Source: Planktothrix tepida PCC 9214
GTDB taxonomy: Bacteria > Cyanobacteriota > Cyanobacteriia > Cyanobacteriales > Microcoleaceae
Assembly (NCBI RefSeq): GCF_900009145.1
Contig: NZ_LN889813.1
Span: 201,129-234,755, forward strand
DNA length: 33,627 nucleotides
Direction of reading: 5' to 3'
Shown: piece by piece, positions 23,945 through 33,265 of the stretch
Layout of the letters: every line of letters begins with the position of its first letter
How positions within the stretch are numbered: position 1 is the stretch's first letter
The notes under the pieces: model-generated
Databases searched by the model: none
Told to the model about the DNA's origin: nothing
What the model saw: only the letters and a program-made list of their open reading frames with translations
Program-made: the position numbers and the translations under genes

Positions 23945-24343
23945 CTAGTGAGAGTTTTGGTTAGCAATATACTTTTTGATAGTTTCACTAGAAACAGAAC
24001 CAGCCGTCCCACAATAATAGCTTCGACTCCACAAAGAAGGTAGTTTAAGTAAATGAGGAAATTCTTTTCTTAATATTCTTGATGATGCCCCTTTGATTCT
24101 GAACATAATTTGATGTGGAGCAATCAAAGGGTGACAACTAATAAATAAATGCACATGATCAGGCATTATCTCCAGAGCTAGGACATCACATTCTAGCTCT
24201 TTTGCTTTTTGGTAGATAATTTCCTCTAATCTTCTGCTCACTCCGTTAACCAACACCCTTTTCCTCCTTTTTGGGCAAAAGACAAAATGATAGTTGATCA
24301 GACTAACTGATGTGTTTTTTCTTCTATATTGATTTTCTGTCAT
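23945..24343 (-). CDS. tnpA: IS200/IS605 TnpA, Y1 HUH transposase (copy 2)
   Basis: Identical 132-aa protein to copy 1, with HVH at 63-65 and catalytic Y125. No mutation separates the copies, so either could mobilise both. Transcribed leftward toward the nucleosidase-like gene's promoter region. Confidence 0.95.
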   Translation of the reverse strand: MTENQYRRKNTSVSLINYHFVFCPKRRKRVLVNGVSRRLEEIIYQKAKELECDVLALEIMPDHVHLFISCHPLIAPHQIMFRIKGASSRILRKEFPHLLKLPSLWSRSYYCGTAGSVSSETIKKYIANQNSH

Positions 24344-24378
24344 TGTCGATACACACGATTCATCAACCTTATGTTATC

Positions 24379-25605
24379 ATGGATGACATGACAAAAATAA
24401 CTCGGACGATTAAATTGAAATTCGTGGATCTCAACCGTTGTAAAGCTCAGGTGTTTGAGCAAATGACGGCAGAAAACACACGGGTTGCCAACAAGCTGTT
24501 GTCATTGCCGATTAAAGAACGGCGTAAAATGACAACAGCTAAAATTATGTCCGAGTTAAAATCTGCCCTTGTTAACCAAGTAATCCGACATACCACATCA
24601 CCCACAGGTCGTAAAACCAAACAATATAAAGTTCTTCCTGTGGAAGTTAACAACCAAAACTGGAAGTTAACCCTAAAAGGGAATACTTATTCAATTAGTT
24701 TTCCAACCCTTAAAGGTGAAAAAAGAATTCCCATTGAAGTTGCATCTCCCCATTGGCAACCTGTTTTAGACGGATTGTTAGAGGGAACAATTCAAGGGGG
24801 TTCTTTTAAATTAATTAAACATCGAAATAAGTGGTATGCCTATCTGTCAATTACTGAGGATGTTCCAGAAGTTAAGACGGAGAAAAGATTAGGATGTGAC
24901 CGAGGACAGAATAATTTAGCGGTAGTTGCACCTAAACAGGGTTTTGGTAAGTTCTTTAATGGTCAAAGCGTTAAGCATCGGAGACGTTATTTTCAACAAC
25001 GAAGAAAACAACTTCAAGAAGCTAAAAAGTTTCGAGCATTAAAGAAATGGGACAAAAAAGAACGACGATGGATGGATGCAATCAATCATACAATCAGCCG
25101 TCGAATTGTTCGTTTTGCCGAATACCATAATGCTGATGTTGTTATTGAGGATTTAGAAGGATGTCGAAGCACAATGAAACAGAGCCAAAAATCTCGTTCT
25201 GATTCCGGTGAATCTCGACATAATTGGTCTTATTATTCTTTGGAACAGAAACTTAATTATAAGTTGGCTCTTAAAGGATTGAAATTAATTAAAAGACCTG
25301 CGCCATACACTTCCAAATCCTGTTCAACCTGTGGTTTTATTGGTAAAAGAAATCGACATGATTTCAATTGCCCTAATGGTCACTACCATAACTCTGATTT
25401 GAATGCTGCGAAAAACCTAGCTCAATGGGACGGTTTTTCTTGTCAGTTAGACCTACAGAGAGATGCTTCTGTAATGGATTCATCCGGTTTAACTGATGGG
25501 GTGCTTGGCACACCCCTGAACTCGGTGAATACAGTCAAACAAGAGTATATTCAACTGTCTCTGCTTGACTGGACTAGATACGAGAATCCCACCCCTTTAG
25601 CGTAG
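24379..25605 (+). CDS. tnpB: TnpB RNA-guided nuclease (copy 2)
   Basis: Identical to the copy 1 protein: RuvC residues D174, E257 and D340 are intact, and the zinc finger has the same CPNGH variant. The start is placed at ATG 24379 by the same reasoning, ignoring the in-frame extension back to 24310. The stop again lies in the right-end hairpin loop. What differs is the DNA after the tip (25626-25645), which would give this copy a different guide from copy 1. Confidence 0.93.
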   Translation: MDDMTKITRTIKLKFVDLNRCKAQVFEQMTAENTRVANKLLSLPIKERRKMTTAKIMSELKSALVNQVIRHTTSPTGRKTKQYKVLPVEVNNQNWKLTLKGNTYSISFPTLKGEKRIPIEVASPHWQPVLDGLLEGTIQGGSFKLIKHRNKWYAYLSITEDVPEVKTEKRLGCDRGQNNLAVVAPKQGFGKFFNGQSVKHRRRYFQQRRKQLQEAKKFRALKKWDKKERRWMDAINHTISRRIVRFAEYHNADVVIEDLEGCRSTMKQSQKSRSDSGESRHNWSYYSLEQKLNYKLALKGLKLIKRPAPYTSKSCSTCGFIGKRNRHDFNCPNGHYHNSDLNAAKNLAQWDGFSCQLDLQRDASVMDSSGLTDGVLGTPLNSVNTVKQEYIQLSLLDWTRYENPTPLA

Positions 25606-26133: not shown

Positions 26134-29100
26134 TCACGCGAAATGATCACAGCTTTGGCTAAAAATACACACCTGATTTCGTCCCTGTTGTTTAGCTTGG
26201 TATAACGCAGCATCCGCCGCCCGTAAAATGGACTCTCCCGTTACACCTTGGGCTGGGAAGATGGCAAGCCCTAAAGATAAGGTAATCTGACCTAAATCTT
26301 GATAGTGATGTTGTAGCTTCAGATTTTGAACTTCAATTCGGATTGTTTCTGCCCTTTCCTCAAGAATTTCCAGAGAAACTTCAGGTAAAATCAGGGTAAA
26401 TTCCTCTCCCCCATAACGGCAAGCAATATCTGAACCCCGGATATGTTGTTGTAAAAAAGCACCCAGTTTTTGTAAAACAATATCTCCGGCATCATGACCA
26501 TAGTTATCATTATAATGTTTAAAGTGATCAATATCAATCATCATCACCCCTAAACAAAATTTCTGACGTTGGGCGCGGCTAATTTCTCGTTCTAAAGATT
26601 CTTCTAAATAACGACGATTATATAACCCCGTTAAACTATCTCGAATACTTTGATATTCTAAGGCTTCTCGTAGTTTTAAATTAGCTAACGCTAAAGCAAT
26701 ATGTTCCGCAACAGCGATTGCCAACCGTTGTTGGTCTTCAGAAAGTTGTCCGGGTTCCTGAGAAGCCAAACATAATAATCCCAAGGCATCTCCTTGGGCG
26801 GTCATGGGAATACAAAGATGTTCAACCGCAGGTAAAGGAACCCCAGATGACTCTATTGCCGTTGTCAGTGCTCGGCCAATTTCACTAGAATTGATTAATT
26901 TGAGTTGACTCCTATGTAATTTTTTATAGATATGTTTACATAATAAATGACTTTTAGGAGAAGCTACAAAATGAGATCTTCCTCGACGCAATGCCCAGCA
27001 ATCTGGAGGGCTAAAAACACTTTCACTCAAGGCTTCTAAATTTCCCCAACTAGCAACCATTTCCACTAAATTTTTAGAATTTTTAGTCACAAATAAACTC
27101 CCCGAAAGATGGGGGAAAAAAGGCTTGAGTAATTCATTAATGACTTGATAAGCTTCTTCTGTTGAATTACACGCTTGTAAGAACTCACTCATTTGACCGA
27201 GTAGCACAGTTTCACGGTTTCGTTGTTTCAAATCATTCACCCAACGGGTGAGTTTTTCATTCGCTTGTTGAGCCGCTTCTTGGGTTTGCTTACGCTCTGT
27301 AATATCACGACAAGTCACCGCTAAACCATCGAAAAGGGGAACAACTTGCAACTGTACCCATTTGGCTTTAACATTCGGGTCAGAAACTGCTAATTCTTCC
27401 TCAAATCCTTTATGGGTTTTGAACCCCCGCAGATATTTATCAAAATATCCCCATTGTCCCCAAGGAAAAATCTCATAAAGTCCTTTTCCGAGTAAACTTT
27501 CTTTATTTTGTGAAATCATTTCTTCCGCTTTAGAATTCATATCAACCAAGATAAAATCAATTGATTTTCCCGCTTCATCTCGACAATTTTGTAATAGAAA
27601 AAACGCATCTAAACTGCCATCAATAGCGGCTCTAAACCGGGATTCTGAATCCTGAAGAGCGACGGTTGCTTTTTGCCGTTCAATAGCTTCTTGTTGCAGG
27701 TCGTTAATGGCTTTTGCTAATTCTTGAGTGCGCTGTTCTACTCGTTCTTCTAGTTCTTCATTAATTTGATGTAATTGATTTTCTAAGAGTTTCCGTTCCG
27801 CAATTTCTCGAATTAATTCATCATTGGAAGTTGCCAATTGCAGGGTTCTTTCCTGTACTTTAATTTCCAGGTCTTCTTGAGATTTTTGGATCGCTAATTC
27901 TACTTGTTTGCGATCGCTAATATCCCGCATAAAAACCGTTAAAATTTTACCTTGATCTAAAAACAACTCAGAAATAGAAACCTCAGCCGGAAATTCCGTA
28001 CCATCTTTGCGACGACCGATGACTTCACTATAATCTTTAATATTTTTAAATAAACAACAATTTGAAGATACTAATTCTAAGTTAGATTGATCATGTCTTT
28101 CAATAAAAGTTTTAGAAATTAAAAGACAAAAGGGCTGTTTTAACACTTCATTTGCCGTATAACCAAATATTTTTTCAGCCCCTTGATTAAATAACGTAAT
28201 TTGTTGCTCTTCATTAATAGAAATAATGGCATCTTGAGCCATATCTAAAATGCCAGCCAAGCGCAAACCCGAATCGATAATCGCTTGTTCAGCTTGCTTT
28301 GCCTTGGTAATATCTCGATTAATTTTTAGAATAGCAATCGGATTTCCGTCCCCATCTTTTTTGAGCGACCAACTACTATGAATAACCACAATATTTCCTT
28401 GACGGTTGGTTTGAATTAATTCTCCTTCCCAATTTCCTTTCTCAAACACTTCTTGGTGAATTTTATCAAGGGGTTTAGGAAATTGAGTGTTTAAGATTTT
28501 AACTAAATTTTTTCCTAATGCTTCTAATTTAGAATATCCATAAAGTTTTTCAGCCCCTTGGCTCCAATAGGTAATATTATTATTCAAATCAACGGCAACA
28601 ATTCCATCATTGGCTAAATCTAAAAGTTGAGTCTGATCTTGTAAAATTTGTTGAGTTCGGGCTTGTTCTAATAGTTCTTGTTTTAACCGATGATTTAAAG
28701 ATTCTAACTCGGCGGTACGTTCAGAAACTTTGATTTCCAGGTCTTCATTAATTTTTTTTAATGCTTCTTCTGCCCATTTTCGCTCCGTAATATTGGTTAG
28801 AATCACCACACAGCCTTTGAAAGAATTATGGGGAATTGAAAGGGGACTAGCACTCATAAGAAAGTTGAAGGTTTTGCCATCATCTCGCAGAAATAATACT
28901 TCTTGACCTTTATAGGGATTCCCATTAATAACGGAGGCGATTGAAAACATCGAATTGTTCTCTTTTCCCAAGCCAGACTGACCGCCATTAGAGTTGGGGA
29001 AGAGTTCAAGTTTAATCATGTCATCGAAATTAGAAAGCAGTAAATTTTTACCTAAAATTTTGTGGGATTCCTCGCTGGCTCGAATAATTTTTCCTTGATG

Positions 29101-29691
29101 ATCACAAACAATAATAGACTCTGCCGCTTGTTCTAACAGTAGCCTAGTTAACCGTTCTTGAGCAATTAACTCTTCATCTCGTTTTTGTTCTGATAAATCC
29201 GTAACAATTAAACATCCAACGTCAACCCCTTTTTGATTTAAGATGCTAATGGAAAGATAAACCGGAACCTCAGTTCCATCCGCAGCAATTAAGATTAATT
29301 CTCCTTTCCCGGAACCCAAACTAGCCTTCTGACATAAAGCCTCAAATAGCATAATGTCAGAAGGGGAAATAAATTGTTTAAAATCGCTACCAATTAATTT
29401 TTTTAACGGGGTTTTGACTAAAGCAGCGAGTCGTTTATTACAATAAAGCAATAACGTACTATCGGTAGTAATCGTTGCCGCGCCTTCTTTCATTTCTTCG
29501 ACTAAAAGTCGATAGGAAGAATCCGCCCCTTGCAGGGTATAAACTTGCTCTCCCTGTGATCCCGCAATCACTAAAGCATCCACCTCTCCATTGCCAATTG
29601 CGCGTAATGTTTCCTCGGCAATTGATAATTGGTAACGCAGATTATCAACTTCTTGTTTTAATTCTAGTTCTGATGGTTTAAAGTTAACCAT
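26134..29691 (-). CDS. Multi-PAS, GAF diguanylate cyclase, last gene of the KaiB-like operon
   Basis: A 1185-aa protein with no membrane helix, so probably cytoplasmic. Order: N-terminal coiled coil; a conserved motif (NGEVDALVIAGSQGEQVYTL, about 32-51); PAS domains near 55-170, 180-305, 345-465, 475-600 and 675-800 separated by coiled coils; a GAF domain (about 830-1000); and GGDEF (1015-1180). The signature GGEEF is at 1094-1098, and RGSD five residues ahead is an intact I-site, so the cyclase should be active and product-inhibited. No EAL follows. The N-terminal motif resembles one I recall at the start of PAS kinases encoded beside kaiB genes in other bacteria. The ATG lies 31 bases after the second kaiB-like stop. 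Confidence 0.9.
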   Translation of the reverse strand: MVNFKPSELELKQEVDNLRYQLSIAEETLRAIGNGEVDALVIAGSQGEQVYTLQGADSSYRLLVEEMKEGAATITTDSTLLLYCNKRLAALVKTPLKKLIGSDFKQFISPSDIMLFEALCQKASLGSGKGELILIAADGTEVPVYLSISILNQKGVDVGCLIVTDLSEQKRDEELIAQERLTRLLLEQAAESIIVCDHQGKIIRASEESHKILGKNLLLSNFDDMIKLELFPNSNGGQSGLGKENNSMFSIASVINGNPYKGQEVLFLRDDGKTFNFLMSASPLSIPHNSFKGCVVILTNITERKWAEEALKKINEDLEIKVSERTAELESLNHRLKQELLEQARTQQILQDQTQLLDLANDGIVAVDLNNNITYWSQGAEKLYGYSKLEALGKNLVKILNTQFPKPLDKIHQEVFEKGNWEGELIQTNRQGNIVVIHSSWSLKKDGDGNPIAILKINRDITKAKQAEQAIIDSGLRLAGILDMAQDAIISINEEQQITLFNQGAEKIFGYTANEVLKQPFCLLISKTFIERHDQSNLELVSSNCCLFKNIKDYSEVIGRRKDGTEFPAEVSISELFLDQGKILTVFMRDISDRKQVELAIQKSQEDLEIKVQERTLQLATSNDELIREIAERKLLENQLHQINEELEERVEQRTQELAKAINDLQQEAIERQKATVALQDSESRFRAAIDGSLDAFFLLQNCRDEAGKSIDFILVDMNSKAEEMISQNKESLLGKGLYEIFPWGQWGYFDKYLRGFKTHKGFEEELAVSDPNVKAKWVQLQVVPLFDGLAVTCRDITERKQTQEAAQQANEKLTRWVNDLKQRNRETVLLGQMSEFLQACNSTEEAYQVINELLKPFFPHLSGSLFVTKNSKNLVEMVASWGNLEALSESVFSPPDCWALRRGRSHFVASPKSHLLCKHIYKKLHRSQLKLINSSEIGRALTTAIESSGVPLPAVEHLCIPMTAQGDALGLLCLASQEPGQLSEDQQRLAIAVAEHIALALANLKLREALEYQSIRDSLTGLYNRRYLEESLEREISRAQRQKFCLGVMMIDIDHFKHYNDNYGHDAGDIVLQKLGAFLQQHIRGSDIACRYGGEEFTLILPEVSLEILEERAETIRIEVQNLKLQHHYQDLGQITLSLGLAIFPAQGVTGESILRAADAALYQAKQQGRNQVCIFSQSCDHFA

Positions 29692-29722
29692 AGTTAACTC
29701 TCAAATCCGGGAAAAACATGAT

Positions 29723-30046
29723 TTAAAAGGATAAATTTAAAGCCATGAGGATTCTTTCAGTTTGAGATAAATCCCCAATAATTCGTTGTAATGGTAAGGG
29801 TAGCAGTCGAATCAAAGTTGGGACAGCGACGATGGGTTCGCCTTGGGTCAATTCGGGTTGCTGGTACACATCAATTACTTCTAAATCATAATGATCTTTT
29901 AAGTAAGTTTCACAAATGTACTTGATGGTTTTTAAAGCAAGAATTGACTTGAAATTAGTTCCCGCAATATATAAACGAAAGCTGTAAAAATTTTCCCCTC
30001 TTAGTTGCTGAAATTCCGGTTTAGATTGCAGACAATGAGATTTCAT
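29723..30046 (-). CDS. KaiB-like protein 2 (divergent)
   Basis: A 107-aa protein of the KaiB family. Visible are FRLYIAGTNFKSILALKTIKYICETYL, IDVYQQPELTQ, VAVPTLIRLLPLPLQRIIGDLSQTERILMALNL. The PTL-R-LP-P-RIIGDLS core is well kept, but the usual DKI segment before PTL is changed to EPI, and the acidic C-terminal tail of clock KaiB is absent. It has an extra 20 residues at the N-terminus. KaiB switches between two folds and, in the fold-switched form, binds KaiC and competes with SasA; whether this copy can do so is unknown. AGGA lies seven bases before the ATG. It follows KaiB-like 1 by 22 bases. Confidence 0.88.
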   Translation of the reverse strand: MKSHCLQSKPEFQQLRGENFYSFRLYIAGTNFKSILALKTIKYICETYLKDHYDLEVIDVYQQPELTQGEPIVAVPTLIRLLPLPLQRIIGDLSQTERILMALNLSF

Positions 30047-30068
30047 GATCTTTTCCTTGTGTATTGAA

Positions 30069-30395
30069 TTAAAGATTTTTCCATTCTTCCCCTTTCCATA
30101 GCTCTAACCCCACTAAGACTTTTTCAGGATTGGATAAATCTCCAATAACTTGCTTTAAGGGTCGAGGAATGGTGCGAACTAATGTAGGAAGGGCAAAAAT
30201 TTTATCTTGCTGGGCGAGTTGCGGATTTTCTAACAAATCGATAATTTCAATTTGATATTGACCCTGGAGATACTGCTCACAAATTTTTTTCAAATTGGTG
30301 AACGCTGTAATCGCTTTAGGTGTTTGTCCAGCAACATATAAACGAAGTTCCCATAATTTGGGTTCATCGGGTTCCAAGTTTTCTTGATTATCCAT
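30069..30395 (-). CDS. KaiB-like protein 1
   Basis: A 108-aa protein much closer to clock Kai[58 protein letters not shown] and [18 protein letters not shown]. These follow the KaiB pattern almost position by position. It has an acidic 15-residue N-terminal extension and a short C-terminus (GEEWKNL) instead of the acidic tail. No kaiA or kaiC lies in the window, so this is a KaiB paralog (as for KaiB2/KaiB3 types) rather than the kaiABC operon gene. It begins a three-gene minus-strand unit with KaiB-like 2 and the diguanylate cyclase. A perfect inverted repeat lies 24 bases upstream. No strong ribosome site is visible. Confidence 0.92.
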
Positions 30396-30647: not shown

Positions 30648-31136
30648 TCACTCTGTAGCCACAGATAACCTTTTGACCGTTGAATCACAACGAACGATAA
30701 TTCCTTGAGTCCGGGGTGAAAAGGTTTTTTGCTTGGGTAAAGTGAGTTGTAATACATTTCCCTGAAATTCTGCTGTTACGGTTTCGGGATGCACCGCATA
30801 AGGTAAAGGAATCAAACTTTGAAATTCTTGGGCTGGATAGGTAAAATCACAATAACCCAAAATTTGTACCTGTTCAATCTTTTCTCCCGCTAAAAAAACC
30901 GTTTCGGATGTTACCCGAATTTGCAAATCTTCGGGTTGAAAACAGGGAATTGAGATGTTTAAAAGAAGATGGGTTGACGTTTCCAGCATTTGGACATCCC
31001 GAATCGGTGTTGTTCCCTCCTGAGCGACCCAAATGGTGAGGGGGGGATTGGTTGAAATCGGGTTATCGGTGAGAAACTGTATCCGTTGATACAAATTTCC
31101 CAGAAACTGCCAAATTTTTAAATTCTCGAAAATCAT
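30648..31136 (-). CDS. Hsp20/alpha-crystallin-like protein
   Basis: A 162-aa protein with an alpha-crystallin domain (about 45-150). LLLNISIPCFQPEDLQIRV, TVFLAGEKIEQ, and AEFQGNVLQLTLPK follow the Hsp20 strand pattern, including the final A-x-x-x-x-NVL-x-LTLPK signature. The N-terminal arm (about 40 residues) is short and hydrophobic in part, and the C-terminal IXI motif is replaced by TQGIIVRC. Hsp20 proteins hold unfolding proteins and often attach to membranes. This is a divergent member. It is 252 bases upstream of the KaiB-like genes on the same strand, so co-transcription is possible but not shown. ATG 31136 has no strong ribosome site. A GAAC-N4-GTTC palindrome lies about 50 bases upstream. 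Confidence 0.75.
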   Translation of the reverse strand: MIFENLKIWQFLGNLYQRIQFLTDNPISTNPPLTIWVAQEGTTPIRDVQMLETSTHLLLNISIPCFQPEDLQIRVTSETVFLAGEKIEQVQILGYCDFTYPAQEFQSLIPLPYAVHPETVTAEFQGNVLQLTLPKQKTFSPRTQGIIVRCDSTVKRLSVATE

Positions 31137-31453: not shown

Positions 31454-33265
31454 TTACAAAGTAGGTTGCAAACGACGCCAAATTTCGGTGCTTAGGGCTT
31501 CGGCTCCCATGTCCTTACTTAGATATTGGGAAGCCCCCACCGCAAATGCTTGGACAATTCTACTTTCTTCAGTATAAGCTGAAAAAAAGATGATGGGAAG
31601 ATGTCGCCATCGTTGATCAGTGCGTACCGCTTGGCAGAGATCTAAACCATTAAAACCCGACATTTCCCAATCTAATATTAATAAATCGGGATGACAATCT
31701 AATAGCACCTCCCAAAAAGCTTCCGGGTTTTCTAGGGTTGTAACGTTTATACCCATTGCATTTAACAAGTTACTCATATAGCTCAAAAGAGCCGGATCAT
31801 CATCCACAACTAAAACCCGATTTCCCCTTCCCCGTCGAGACCAGGAGAGTACCTCTGTCACAGCTTTTAAAATTTCATAAGCCGGTAAAGGTTTAGATAA
31901 AAATGTCTTTACACCTAAACGAGCAACCGTAACACGAGCCTTTAAACTTTGCCGTCCAGTTAAAGTAATCACTGGGATTTGAGGAATCCGACGGCTGAGT
32001 TCTGCTAATAACGTTAAACCACTTTCTTGAGGATTAGGAAAGGTTAAATCGAGTAAAATAATATTAGGAGGATTTTGACTAATCATTTTACGAGCAACGG
32101 AAAGATCCGTCGCAATTTCAACTCGCAACCCCCAAGCATTGGCTTCAACTCGAATTTGTTCTGCTAACATTAAGTCATCATCAACAATTAAAATCAAGGG
32201 AGAATAAGCAACGGGTTCTGAAGATAAAGGAATTAATAACGTTTCTCGACTAGCTTCCAAACTCAGGGTTGCGACTAAATCAGAAATTAATTGACTGTCT
32301 TTAATATCTAGTTGAGGATGTTCTAAAAGATGTTCAAGTTCTCGCGCCACTTTTGATCCTTCCTGCAACCCAAAAAGTCCCAATGATCCCGATAATTTAT
32401 GAGCTTCCTGTAAAGCTTGTTCTTGAAGTTCTGGGGTTAATTTTCTTTCAACTAAAGTAGAAGCAACTTGTTCTAAAATGGCAATTTGTTCTTTAACTTT
32501 AACTTTAAAACTTTGCCAAACCTGAGCGGTTTTTTCCCGAATTTGCTGTCGAGAGTCCGTCGGAGAAACCATTACTTTAGACTCAGCAGGATTGGAGGGT
32601 TCTCGTAACCGATATCCCAACCCATGAACCGTTTCAATTAAGTCTGCACTTCCCGCAGCTTTGAGTTTTCGACGCAAACATTTAATATGGGTACTCACGG
32701 TTTCTTCCCCCGGAGATTCAGCAAAATCCCACAGTCGATCTAAAATTGCCTTGCGGCTAAAAATTCGCTTAGGATTGAGTAGGAATAGTTCTAGTAAACA
32801 ATATTCTTTTGAGGTTAAGTGAATCAACTGATCTTCACATTTAACTTCATTGTTAATCGGGTCAAAATAAAGATTTTCCCAAGTCATTACCGCCGAAGAA
32901 ACTGATTTTCCCCGACGCAACAAAGCCCGAACTCTTGCCATTAATTCATCGGGGTCAAAGGGCTTCACCACATAATCATCGGCTCCCGCATCTAAGCCCA
33001 TCACCCGATCTGTACTGCTATCTCTAGCAGTTAATAACAGGATGGGGCTTTGATATCCCTTAATGCGGAGTTGTTTACAAACACTAATCCCATCTAGTTT
33101 AGGAATACAAATATCTAATAAAATTAAATCATAGGTAAAACTCTCAGCCAGTTCTAAGGTGGTTAAGCCATCTGTTGCCGTATTAATAGTATATTGATGA
33201 CCCAGAAGAATTTCACATAAGGCGGCACTGGTGAGGGGGTCATCTTCGACCAACAAAATTTTCAT
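31454..33265 (-). CDS. OmpR-type regulator with HPt and two extra receivers (REC-wHTH-HPt-REC-REC)
   Basis: A 603-aa cytoplasmic protein. Receiver 1 (1-120) has the acidic E7-D8-D9 cluster, phospho-acceptor D51 and K101 in VVKPF. A winged-helix DNA-binding domain (about 128-225) ends with VHGLGYRLREP. Next is an HPt domain with H289 in EAHKLSGSLGLFG. Receiver 2 begins LILIVDDD (acceptor in ILLDLTFPN, SKPL) and receiver 3 begins RVLVVDDD (acceptor in LLILDWEMSG, SKDM). There is no kinase domain, so it depends on an external kinase and can hold a multi-step relay within itself before or while binding DNA. GGAGGG eight bases ahead makes ATG 33265 certain. No partner kinase is adjacent in the window. 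Confidence 0.92.
   Translation of the reverse strand: MKILLVEDDPLTSAALCEILLGHQYTINTATDGLTTLELAESFTYDLILLDICIPKLDGISVCKQLRIKGYQSPILLLTARDSSTDRVMGLDAGADDYVVKPFDPDELMARVRALLRRGKSVSSAVMTWENLYFDPINNEVKCEDQLIHLTSKEYCLLELFLLNPKRIFSRKAILDRLWDFAESPGEETVSTHIKCLRRKLKAAGSADLIETVHGLGYRLREPSNPAESKVMVSPTDSRQQIREKTAQVWQSFKVKVKEQIAILEQVASTLVERKLTPELQEQALQEAHKLSGSLGLFGLQEGSKVARELEHLLEHPQLDIKDSQLISDLVATLSLEASRETLLIPLSSEPVAYSPLILIVDDDLMLAEQIRVEANAWGLRVEIATDLSVARKMISQNPPNIILLDLTFPNPQESGLTLLAELSRRIPQIPVITLTGRQSLKARVTVARLGVKTFLSKPLPAYEILKAVTEVLSWSRRGRGNRVLVVDDDPALLSYMSNLLNAMGINVTTLENPEAFWEVLLDCHPDLLILDWEMSGFNGLDLCQAVRTDQRWRHLPIIFFSAYTEESRIVQAFAVGASQYLSKDMGAEALSTEIWRRLQPTL

What the first reader, a model, noticed from the sequence alone, without database searches (positions are those of the whole stretch)
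26134..30395. KaiC-less operon of two KaiB-like proteins and a PAS/GAF diguanylate cyclase
Seen: two adjacent KaiB-family genes (22 bases apart) followed after 31 bases by a 1185-aa multi-PAS, GAF, GGDEF protein with active GGEEF and intact I-site. Known: KaiB is a fold-switching clock protein that normally works with KaiC and SasA, a histidine kinase. Inference: here the output partner is a c-di-GMP synthase instead of a kinase, so KaiB-like proteins could time or gate c-di-GMP production. The cyclase begins with a GEVDALVIAG...GEQVYTL motif that I recall from PAS kinases encoded beside kaiB in other phyla, which suggests a shared docking module whose output domain has been swapped.
Basis: partly seen in the sequence, partly recalled or inferred. 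Interest (0 to 1): 0.78.

Follow-up and report, generated by a model that had tools for sequence, protein, structure and literature searches.

The report
KaiB pair wired to c-di-GMP cyclase
In a Planktothrix-type cyanobacterium, two clock-like KaiB genes sit in front of an enzyme that should make the signal c-di-GMP; relatives show that the enzyme shares its front half with the sensor kinase of a widespread KaiC-KaiB-KaiB gene set, so clock-type proteins may be plugged directly into a second-messenger enzyme.

Summary
Confirmed: on the minus strand kaiB-like 1, kaiB-like 2 and a 1185-aa PAS/GAF/GGDEF gene lie 22 and 31 bases apart, with GGEEF and I-site intact. All 10 sampled genomes of the genus (Planktothrix) carry the cyclase. 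It is a chimera: residues 1-620 match kinases of a kaiC-kaiB-kaiB-PAS-kinase cassette, residues 652-1176 unrelated cyclases. Its N-terminal module marks that cassette: KaiB lies just upstream of 42 of 44 assessable cyanobacterial module genes and 72 of 74 named loci (overlapping sets; archaea to Bacteroidetes), and near 0 of 40 control kinases. Kinase output was replaced by GGDEF in at least four lineages; one methanotroph contig fuses KaiB2, module and GGDEF-EAL. In Planktothrix the cassette's KaiC is gone (found in 2 of 10 genomes, in a second cassette), KaiB1 has decayed in 2 of 9, while KaiB2 and cyclase stay under purifying selection. Best reading: KaiB2 docks on the module and steers c-di-GMP synthesis. 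Docking and timing are inferred; no structure job ran. Kinase or GGDEF/EAL genes beside kaiBC outside cyanobacteria are in print (2011); module, swap and KaiC-less form did not turn up in ten paper searches.

The parts
30069..30395 (-). kaiB-like 1 (108 aa); counterpart of the first KaiB of the kaiC-kaiB-kaiB cassette
   Evidence: Pfam KaiB 91.2 bits; intact in 7 of 9 readable genus genomes, median dN/dS 0.122 over 21 pairs; decayed remnant in G317 and G304
29723..30046 (-). kaiB-like 2 (107 aa); counterpart of the second KaiB, the one next to the sensor gene
   Evidence: Pfam KaiB 83.9 bits; intact in 9 of 9 readable genus genomes, cut by a contig end in the tenth, median dN/dS 0.107 over 36 pairs; among the top 12 KaiB2-profile hits in 194 genomes
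26134..29691 (-). PAS/GAF/GGDEF diguanylate cyclase (1185 aa), chimera of Kai-cassette sensor and unrelated cyclase
29506..29691 (-). N-terminal module, residues 1-62 (coil-like stretch, then GEVDALVIAG...GEQVYTL), proposed KaiB docking site
   Evidence: G35 in 111 of 111 and D38 in 114 of 114 aligned module rows with a letter there; linkage to KaiB; no PDB sequence match at E 0.01 for residues before 57
27832..29691 (-). half shared with the cassette kinases, residues 1-620
   Evidence: 49% identity to residues 1-630 of the hybrid kinase in L071, same family
26137..27738 (-). cyclase-derived half, residues 652-1185 (PAS, GAF, GGDEF)
   Evidence: 46% identity over 652-1176 to the cyclase in L178; 54% over 793-1175 in L177
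26164..26661 (-). GGDEF domain, residues 1011-1176, GGEEF active site with RGSD I-site
30648..31136 (-). Hsp20-like gene upstream, conserved neighbour in the genus; not claimed as a functional part
   Evidence: Pfam HSP20 31.4 bits; found upstream in 8 of 10 genus loci, the window included; one of the two misses is cut by a contig end

Best explanation
The three genes are the remodelled remnant of a widespread cassette, kaiC-kaiB1-kaiB2-PAS sensor kinase. Shown by sequence: the sensor's first ~62 residues form a module that travels with the KaiB pair; in Planktothrix the part that is a kinase in relatives is a PAS-GAF-GGDEF half of other origin, the cassette's own KaiC is missing from the operon, and KaiB2 and the cyclase are kept under purifying selection. 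Inferred: KaiB2, helped by KaiB1, docks on the coil/GEVDALV module of the cyclase dimer and biases the PAS/coiled-coil stack, so that KaiB state (free or bound, ground or thioredoxin-like fold) sets c-di-GMP synthesis together with the PAS and GAF inputs and I-site feedback. The upstream cue is then either the cell's only KaiC (canonical KaiABC) through competition for KaiB, or KaiB's own slow fold change without KaiC; I cannot separate these.
For: Linkage: KaiB upstream (same strand, within 3.5 kb) in 42 of 44 (set A) and 72 of 74 (set B) assessable module genes, two KaiBs in 39 and 67 (12 loci are in both sets); 0 of 40 control kinases. Reverse: in 194 Cyanobacteriia the 12 best KaiB2-profile hits are the 12 module operons, though 6 of the 12 had rows in the profile; 5 of 5 inspected kaiC-single-kaiB loci lack the module. 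A module search of plasmids gave one record and it reads kaiC-kaiB-kaiB-module protein, the last two genes overlapping. Fusion KaiB2-module-PAS-GGDEF-EAL (L167). Chimera and discordant trees. Other GGDEF outputs: L091; L079/L080; Chromatiaceae. Purifying selection. Three fold-switch prolines kept.
Against: The fusion is one metagenome contig whose KaiB start is cut by the contig end. Two genomes (G501, G556) keep a module kinase with no KaiB pair and no KaiC2, and L104 and L108 are exceptions in set B, so the module can persist without adjacent KaiB. KaiB1 has decayed in 2 of 9 readable genus genomes. The tree of the N-terminus does not place the genus beside L071 or firmly beside any kinase clade. 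Promoter- and terminator-like sites were about as many as chance gives, and transcript structure is unknown.
Confidence: 0.58

Rival explanations
1. Hitch-hiking remnants: after kaiC was lost the KaiB pair became functionless baggage, and the cyclase is an ordinary PAS/GAF sensor cyclase that happens to retain an old N-terminus.
For: KaiC2 not found in 8 of 10 genus genomes (one of the 8, G541, is 73% complete and holds a fragment of a second cassette); KaiB1 decayed in G317 and G304; G501/G556 keep the module kinase without the pair.
Against: Median dN/dS 0.107 for KaiB2 and 0.122 for KaiB1; KaiB2 intact in 9 of 9 readable genomes; in comparisons with the window, module residues 1-75 (0.130, 8 of 9 pairs) and PAS1 (0.105, 9 of 9) have lower medians than GAF (0.242, 9 of 9) and GGDEF (0.178, 8 of 9).
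Confidence: 0.2
2. The two KaiBs act on the canonical KaiC (as amplitude or period modifiers) and not on the cyclase; co-location only gives co-expression.
For: The canonical KaiC is the only KaiC found in the window genome; KaiC3 and KaiB3 of Synechocystis have been suggested to modulate amplitude and period of the standard oscillator (PMC6989803 passages).
Against: The pair is tied to the module in many phyla outside cyanobacteria. In the window KaiB1 lacks both lateral KaiB-KaiB charges (R23, K26) and KaiB2 lacks R23, so cooperative ring formation on KaiC is doubtful.
Confidence: 0.15
3. Chance adjacency or annotation artefact.
For: The genome has 50 GGDEF matches, so a GGDEF neighbour alone is not rare: 5 of 40 ordinary kinases of related genomes have one on the same strand.
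Against: Order conserved through the genus; module specific to KaiB-pair operons.
Confidence: 0.02

Closest known systems
[quoted passage not shown] passages read)
   Same: Signalling gene immediately downstream of kai genes; both kinase and c-di-GMP-type outputs noted outside cyanobacteria
   Different: That report excepts cyanobacteria; the passages I saw describe no shared N-terminal module, no KaiB pair, no output swap and no KaiC-less form of this cluster (its figures and supplements were not seen)
SasA, the KaiC-binding output kinase of the cyanobacterial clock
   Same: Output enzyme coupled to Kai proteins
   Different: SasA carries a KaiB-like domain and a kinase; this cyclase matches neither, its KaiBs are separate proteins; the genome has its own SasA-type kinase
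Synechocystis kaiC2-kaiB2 operon (PMC6989803 passages)
   Same: A non-standard KaiC with a non-standard KaiB
   Different: Five kaiC-single-kaiB loci inspected here lack the module sensor; that these loci are of the Synechocystis type was not tested
Legionella kai operon (KaiB Lpp1115, PDB 4kun)
   Same: A KaiB reported in the fold-switched state and linked to stress response rather than a clock (PMC10808063 passages; that 4kun is the crystal meant is my inference)
   Different: The original paper was not held, so its gene order was not compared

Membership tests
KaiB family (PF07689) | Profile score over curated cut-off | tested here: met
   91.2 and 83.9 bits against 27
KaiB family (PF07689) | Three fold-switch prolines (R. 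sphaeroides P58, P65, P67) | tested here: met
   Positions 63, 70, 72 (own canonical KaiB numbering; matched by their spacing) are P in all 7 genus KaiB1 and all 10 genus KaiB2 rows; feature from PMC11551320 passages
Canonical circadian KaiB (TIGR02654 / NF006798) | Equivalog cut-offs 145.3 and 110 bits | tested here: not met
   KaiB1 95.9/102.0, KaiB2 81.4/82.8
Canonical circadian KaiB (TIGR02654 / NF006798) | Lateral ring charges R23 and K26 (T. elongatus numbering) | tested here: not met
   Window KaiB1 T23 and T26; across the 7 genus KaiB1 rows position 23 is mostly T, with R in one (G364), and 26 is I or T; genus KaiB2 L23, K26 kept (feature from PMC6769508 passages)
Canonical circadian KaiB (TIGR02654 / NF006798) | Binds KaiC CI | not testable with these tools
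   needs biochemistry
Active diguanylate cyclase | GG(D/E)EF active site and RxxD I-site | tested here: met
   RGSD...GGEEF in 10 of 10 genus cyclases
Active diguanylate cyclase | c-di-GMP synthesis | not testable with these tools
   no assay
kaiC-kaiB-kaiB-module cassette (defined here) | Two KaiBs directly upstream of a module-bearing sensor | tested here: met
kaiC-kaiB-kaiB-module cassette (defined here) | Cassette kaiC upstream | tested here: not met
   No kaiC upstream in the 9 genus loci with over 3500 nt upstream; KaiC2 type found in 2 of 10 genus genomes, not in the window's
SasA output kinase | KaiB-like domain plus HisKA/HATPase | tested here: not met
   No KaiB, HisKA or HATPase match in the cyclase

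The most novel reading that the evidence does not exclude
KaiB is, beyond clocks, a general plug-in regulatory subunit: KaiB2 of KaiB-pair cassettes binds a conserved N-terminal module on whatever signalling enzyme follows, and in Planktothrix this partnership has outlived its KaiC and controls c-di-GMP synthesis directly, without phosphorelay and possibly without any KaiC.
Probability: 0.35. Interest if true: 0.87.

Novelty: new variant of a known kind. Interest (0 to 1): 0.72.

Why it matters
What the extra KaiB proteins of bacteria do is an acknowledged gap (PMC10808063 passages), and c-di-GMP was recently shown to shift the Synechococcus clock through factors not yet identified (PMC13001216, abstract and passages). 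This finding gives a concrete candidate link with a named segment, natural swaps that leave the segment constant while the output changes, and a lineage in which the KaiB pair persists without its KaiC. It makes a testable claim: KaiB proteins regulate sensor enzymes directly.

Tried and rejected
Viral contigs with the full cyclase: one hit, in the GGDEF part only. Promoter/terminator scan: 16 promoter-like sites against 16.2 expected and 8 terminator-like against 5.8, no use. Considered that the two KaiBs are a local duplication of the canonical KaiB: rejected, each is like the KaiB at the same place of the cassette in other lineages. Considered that all cassettes lacking kaiC lost it: rejected for G018 and G246, which keep a KaiC2 elsewhere. 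Considered one ancestral GGDEF swap: rejected by discordant trees, although the GGDEF tree has long branches (L091, L167) and few firm deep forks and puts L167 near L079/L080, so the exact number of swaps is uncertain, and the direction kinase-to-cyclase is inferred from nesting. The uniform-placement estimate of GGDEF neighbours of kinase-type operons (13 of 31 against 0.48 expected) overstated the case: 40 other kinases of the same genomes gave 5 of 40, Fisher p 0.006, not corrected for relatedness. Rows left out of the 31: the 13 module genes with GGDEF in frame, L074 (its genome was not) and L095 (contig end).

The drift of the module in G501/G556 (E at 47, and the motif reading GKVDA) fits loss of a KaiB partner, but it is one event, and L080, L132 (both with KaiBs) and L134 also differ at 47; not used as evidence.

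On checking, these points were mended without changing the odds: the KaiB2 profile A2 held rows from 6 of the 12 module genomes that it then found, so only the other 6 are independent; G541 is incomplete; the SasA-type kinase, canonical KaiC, RadA and RecA were first named by length and context and then tested.
Full report
OBSERVATION. The window (G000:C57:201129-234755) carries on its minus strand kaiB-like 1 (30395..30069), kaiB-like 2 (30046..29723) and a 1185-aa gene (29691..26134), 22 and 31 bases apart. Pfam gives KaiB for both small genes and PAS, GAF and GGDEF for the large one, with no kinase domains.

GENUS CONSERVATION. The cyclase N-terminus (residues 1-213) was sought in 194 Cyanobacteriia (12 genomes hit) and 388 genomes of the order (37 hit); the samples overlap. 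All 10 genomes of the genus have a full-length cyclase at 80-100% N-terminal identity. KaiB2 is intact in 9 and cut by a contig end in one; KaiB1 is intact in 7, a decayed remnant in G317 and in G304 (there a deletion joins the start of the Hsp20 gene to the end of kaiB1), and off the contig in G541. Median dN/dS: KaiB1 0.122 (21 pairs), KaiB2 0.107 (36 pairs), cyclase 0.168 (43 of 45 pairs). All 10 have the canonical KaiC; a KaiC2-type KaiC was found in 2 of 10 (G317, G488), each in a second kaiC-kaiB-kaiB operon. Of the 8 without it, 7 are at least 99% complete; G541 is 73% complete and holds a fragment of a second module gene.

THE CASSETTE. Neighbourhoods of all 46 module genes were read (window). 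Of 44 with at least 700 nt upstream, 42 have a KaiB and 39 two; of 43 with at least 3500 nt, 30 have kaiC, one of these broken in a region with transposase-like frames (L032). The 13 without it are nine of the genus, G018 and G246 (KaiC2 elsewhere), and G501 and G556 (no KaiC2 in the genome, and only three KaiB-domain frames, whose lengths fit SasA, canonical and long KaiB). Of 74 with at least 700 nt upstream, 72 have KaiB and 67 two; of 58 with at least 3500 nt, 51 have kaiC. Exceptions: L104 (kaiC and kaiBs further off in the same locus) and L108. A module search of plasmids gave one record of 72,556, and it reads kaiC, kaiB, kaiB, module protein. The reverse test agrees: the 12 best KaiB2-profile hits in 194 genomes (139.7-157.7 bits) are the 12 module operons (6 of them had rows in the profile), the next at 129.7 bits being a kaiC-single-kaiB locus. 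Of six further loci from that list, five are kaiC with a single kaiB and one a lone kaiB; none has the module.

THE SWAP. Residues 1-620 of the cyclase align at 49% to residues 1-630 of the hybrid kinase (HisKA, HATPase, receiver) in L071, of the same family; residues 652-1176 align at 46% to a cyclase without the module (L178), residues 793-1175 at 54% to another (L177). In a tree of the first ~170 residues the genus is one clade within the cyanobacterial set, mostly kinases, but its nearest kin is unresolved and is not L071; in a GGDEF tree it falls among ordinary cyanobacterial cyclases, away from the other Kai-linked GGDEFs. Module genes with GGDEF in the same frame: 13 of 46 in set A (10 genus; L079 and L080; L091) and 10 of 80 in set B (4 genus; 5 Chromatiaceae; L167). 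Pfam finds GAF-GGDEF in L091 and GGDEF-EAL in L079, L118 and L167. By position in the N-terminal tree I count at least four separate changes (genus; L091; L079/L080; Chromatiaceae), with the caution that the GGDEF tree is weak at depth. L091, L079, L080 and the five Chromatiaceae loci keep kaiC. In L167 KaiB2, module, PAS domains, GGDEF and EAL are one open frame of 1170 residues: a natural fusion, but one contig, with the KaiB start cut off. Kinase-type operons also tend to lie by a same-strand GGDEF gene: 13 of 31, against 5 of 40 for other kinases of the same genomes. So c-di-GMP looks like a recurrent output of this cassette in cyanobacteria, wired by direct fusion, by a GGDEF gene right after the kinase (L071, where Pfam shows receiver plus GGDEF; L072 and L077 look alike by length), or by other neighbours.

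MECHANISM. The module stays constant while the output changes. G35 is invariant in 111 of 111 and D38 in 114 of 114 rows. Residues before 57 match nothing in the PDB by sequence at E 0.01; the rest matches PAS-type proteins. I therefore propose that KaiB2 docks there. KaiB1 and KaiB2 keep the three prolines said to set the slow fold switch, but not both charges of the KaiB ring on KaiC, which suggests non-ring use. Which cue moves the KaiBs in Planktothrix, canonical KaiC or none, is open.

WHAT IS KNOWN. [quoted passage not shown] PMC13001216 (abstract, outline and passages) shows that c-di-GMP shifts the S. elongatus clock, with no effect on the KaiB-KaiC binding rhythm in vitro. All ten paper searches were read as listings, several of them capped (for example 12 of 89 papers, 25 of 56); among the titles and abstract starts shown none describes the module, the swap or the KaiC-less cassette. 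The library lacks most subscription papers.

VERDICT. The shared-module and output-swap idea is supported by sequence; docking and timing remain inference. New variant of a known kind.

Noticed in passing
window 23945-25605: An IS200/IS605-type pair (Y1 transposase and TnpB) lies between the cyclase and the PNP-family gene; the same interval is about 1.9 kb shorter in the close relative G419, so it is probably a recent insertion.
   Followed up: partly
window 31454-33265: A 603-aa response regulator (three receivers, winged helix, Hpt) upstream; genes similar to it or to parts of it lie near the cassette in G419 and in L024, L029, L075, L083, L085 and L089, a candidate partner of the kinase-type cassettes.
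   Followed up: partly
G000:C57:443420-443659 (L003): A long KaiB (272-aa frame) with an N-terminal extension, like the elongated cyanobacterial KaiBs of PMC5520375.
   Followed up: no
L144, L147, L152, L159, L169, L173, L174, L175: Eight Bacteroidetes-type cassettes in which the module protein is only 235-241 aa with no output domain found; Pfam on L144 shows PAS-type matches only.
   Followed up: no
L252 (NZ_CP119568.1): A complete kaiC-kaiB-kaiB-module cassette on a plasmid typed as conjugative in Pararhizobium qamdonense; kaiB2 and the sensor gene overlap by 8 nt.
   Followed up: no
L167 1-3514: In-frame KaiB2-module-PAS-GGDEF-EAL fusion in a Methylococcaceae metagenome contig.
   Followed up: partly
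L087, L090 (G501, G556): Module kinases without a KaiB pair or KaiC2 in the genome, with a drifted motif.
   Followed up: partly
L024 (G018): The kaiC place of the cassette is taken by an 839-aa regulator-like gene with GGDEF; the KaiC2 sits about 200 kb away.
   Followed up: no
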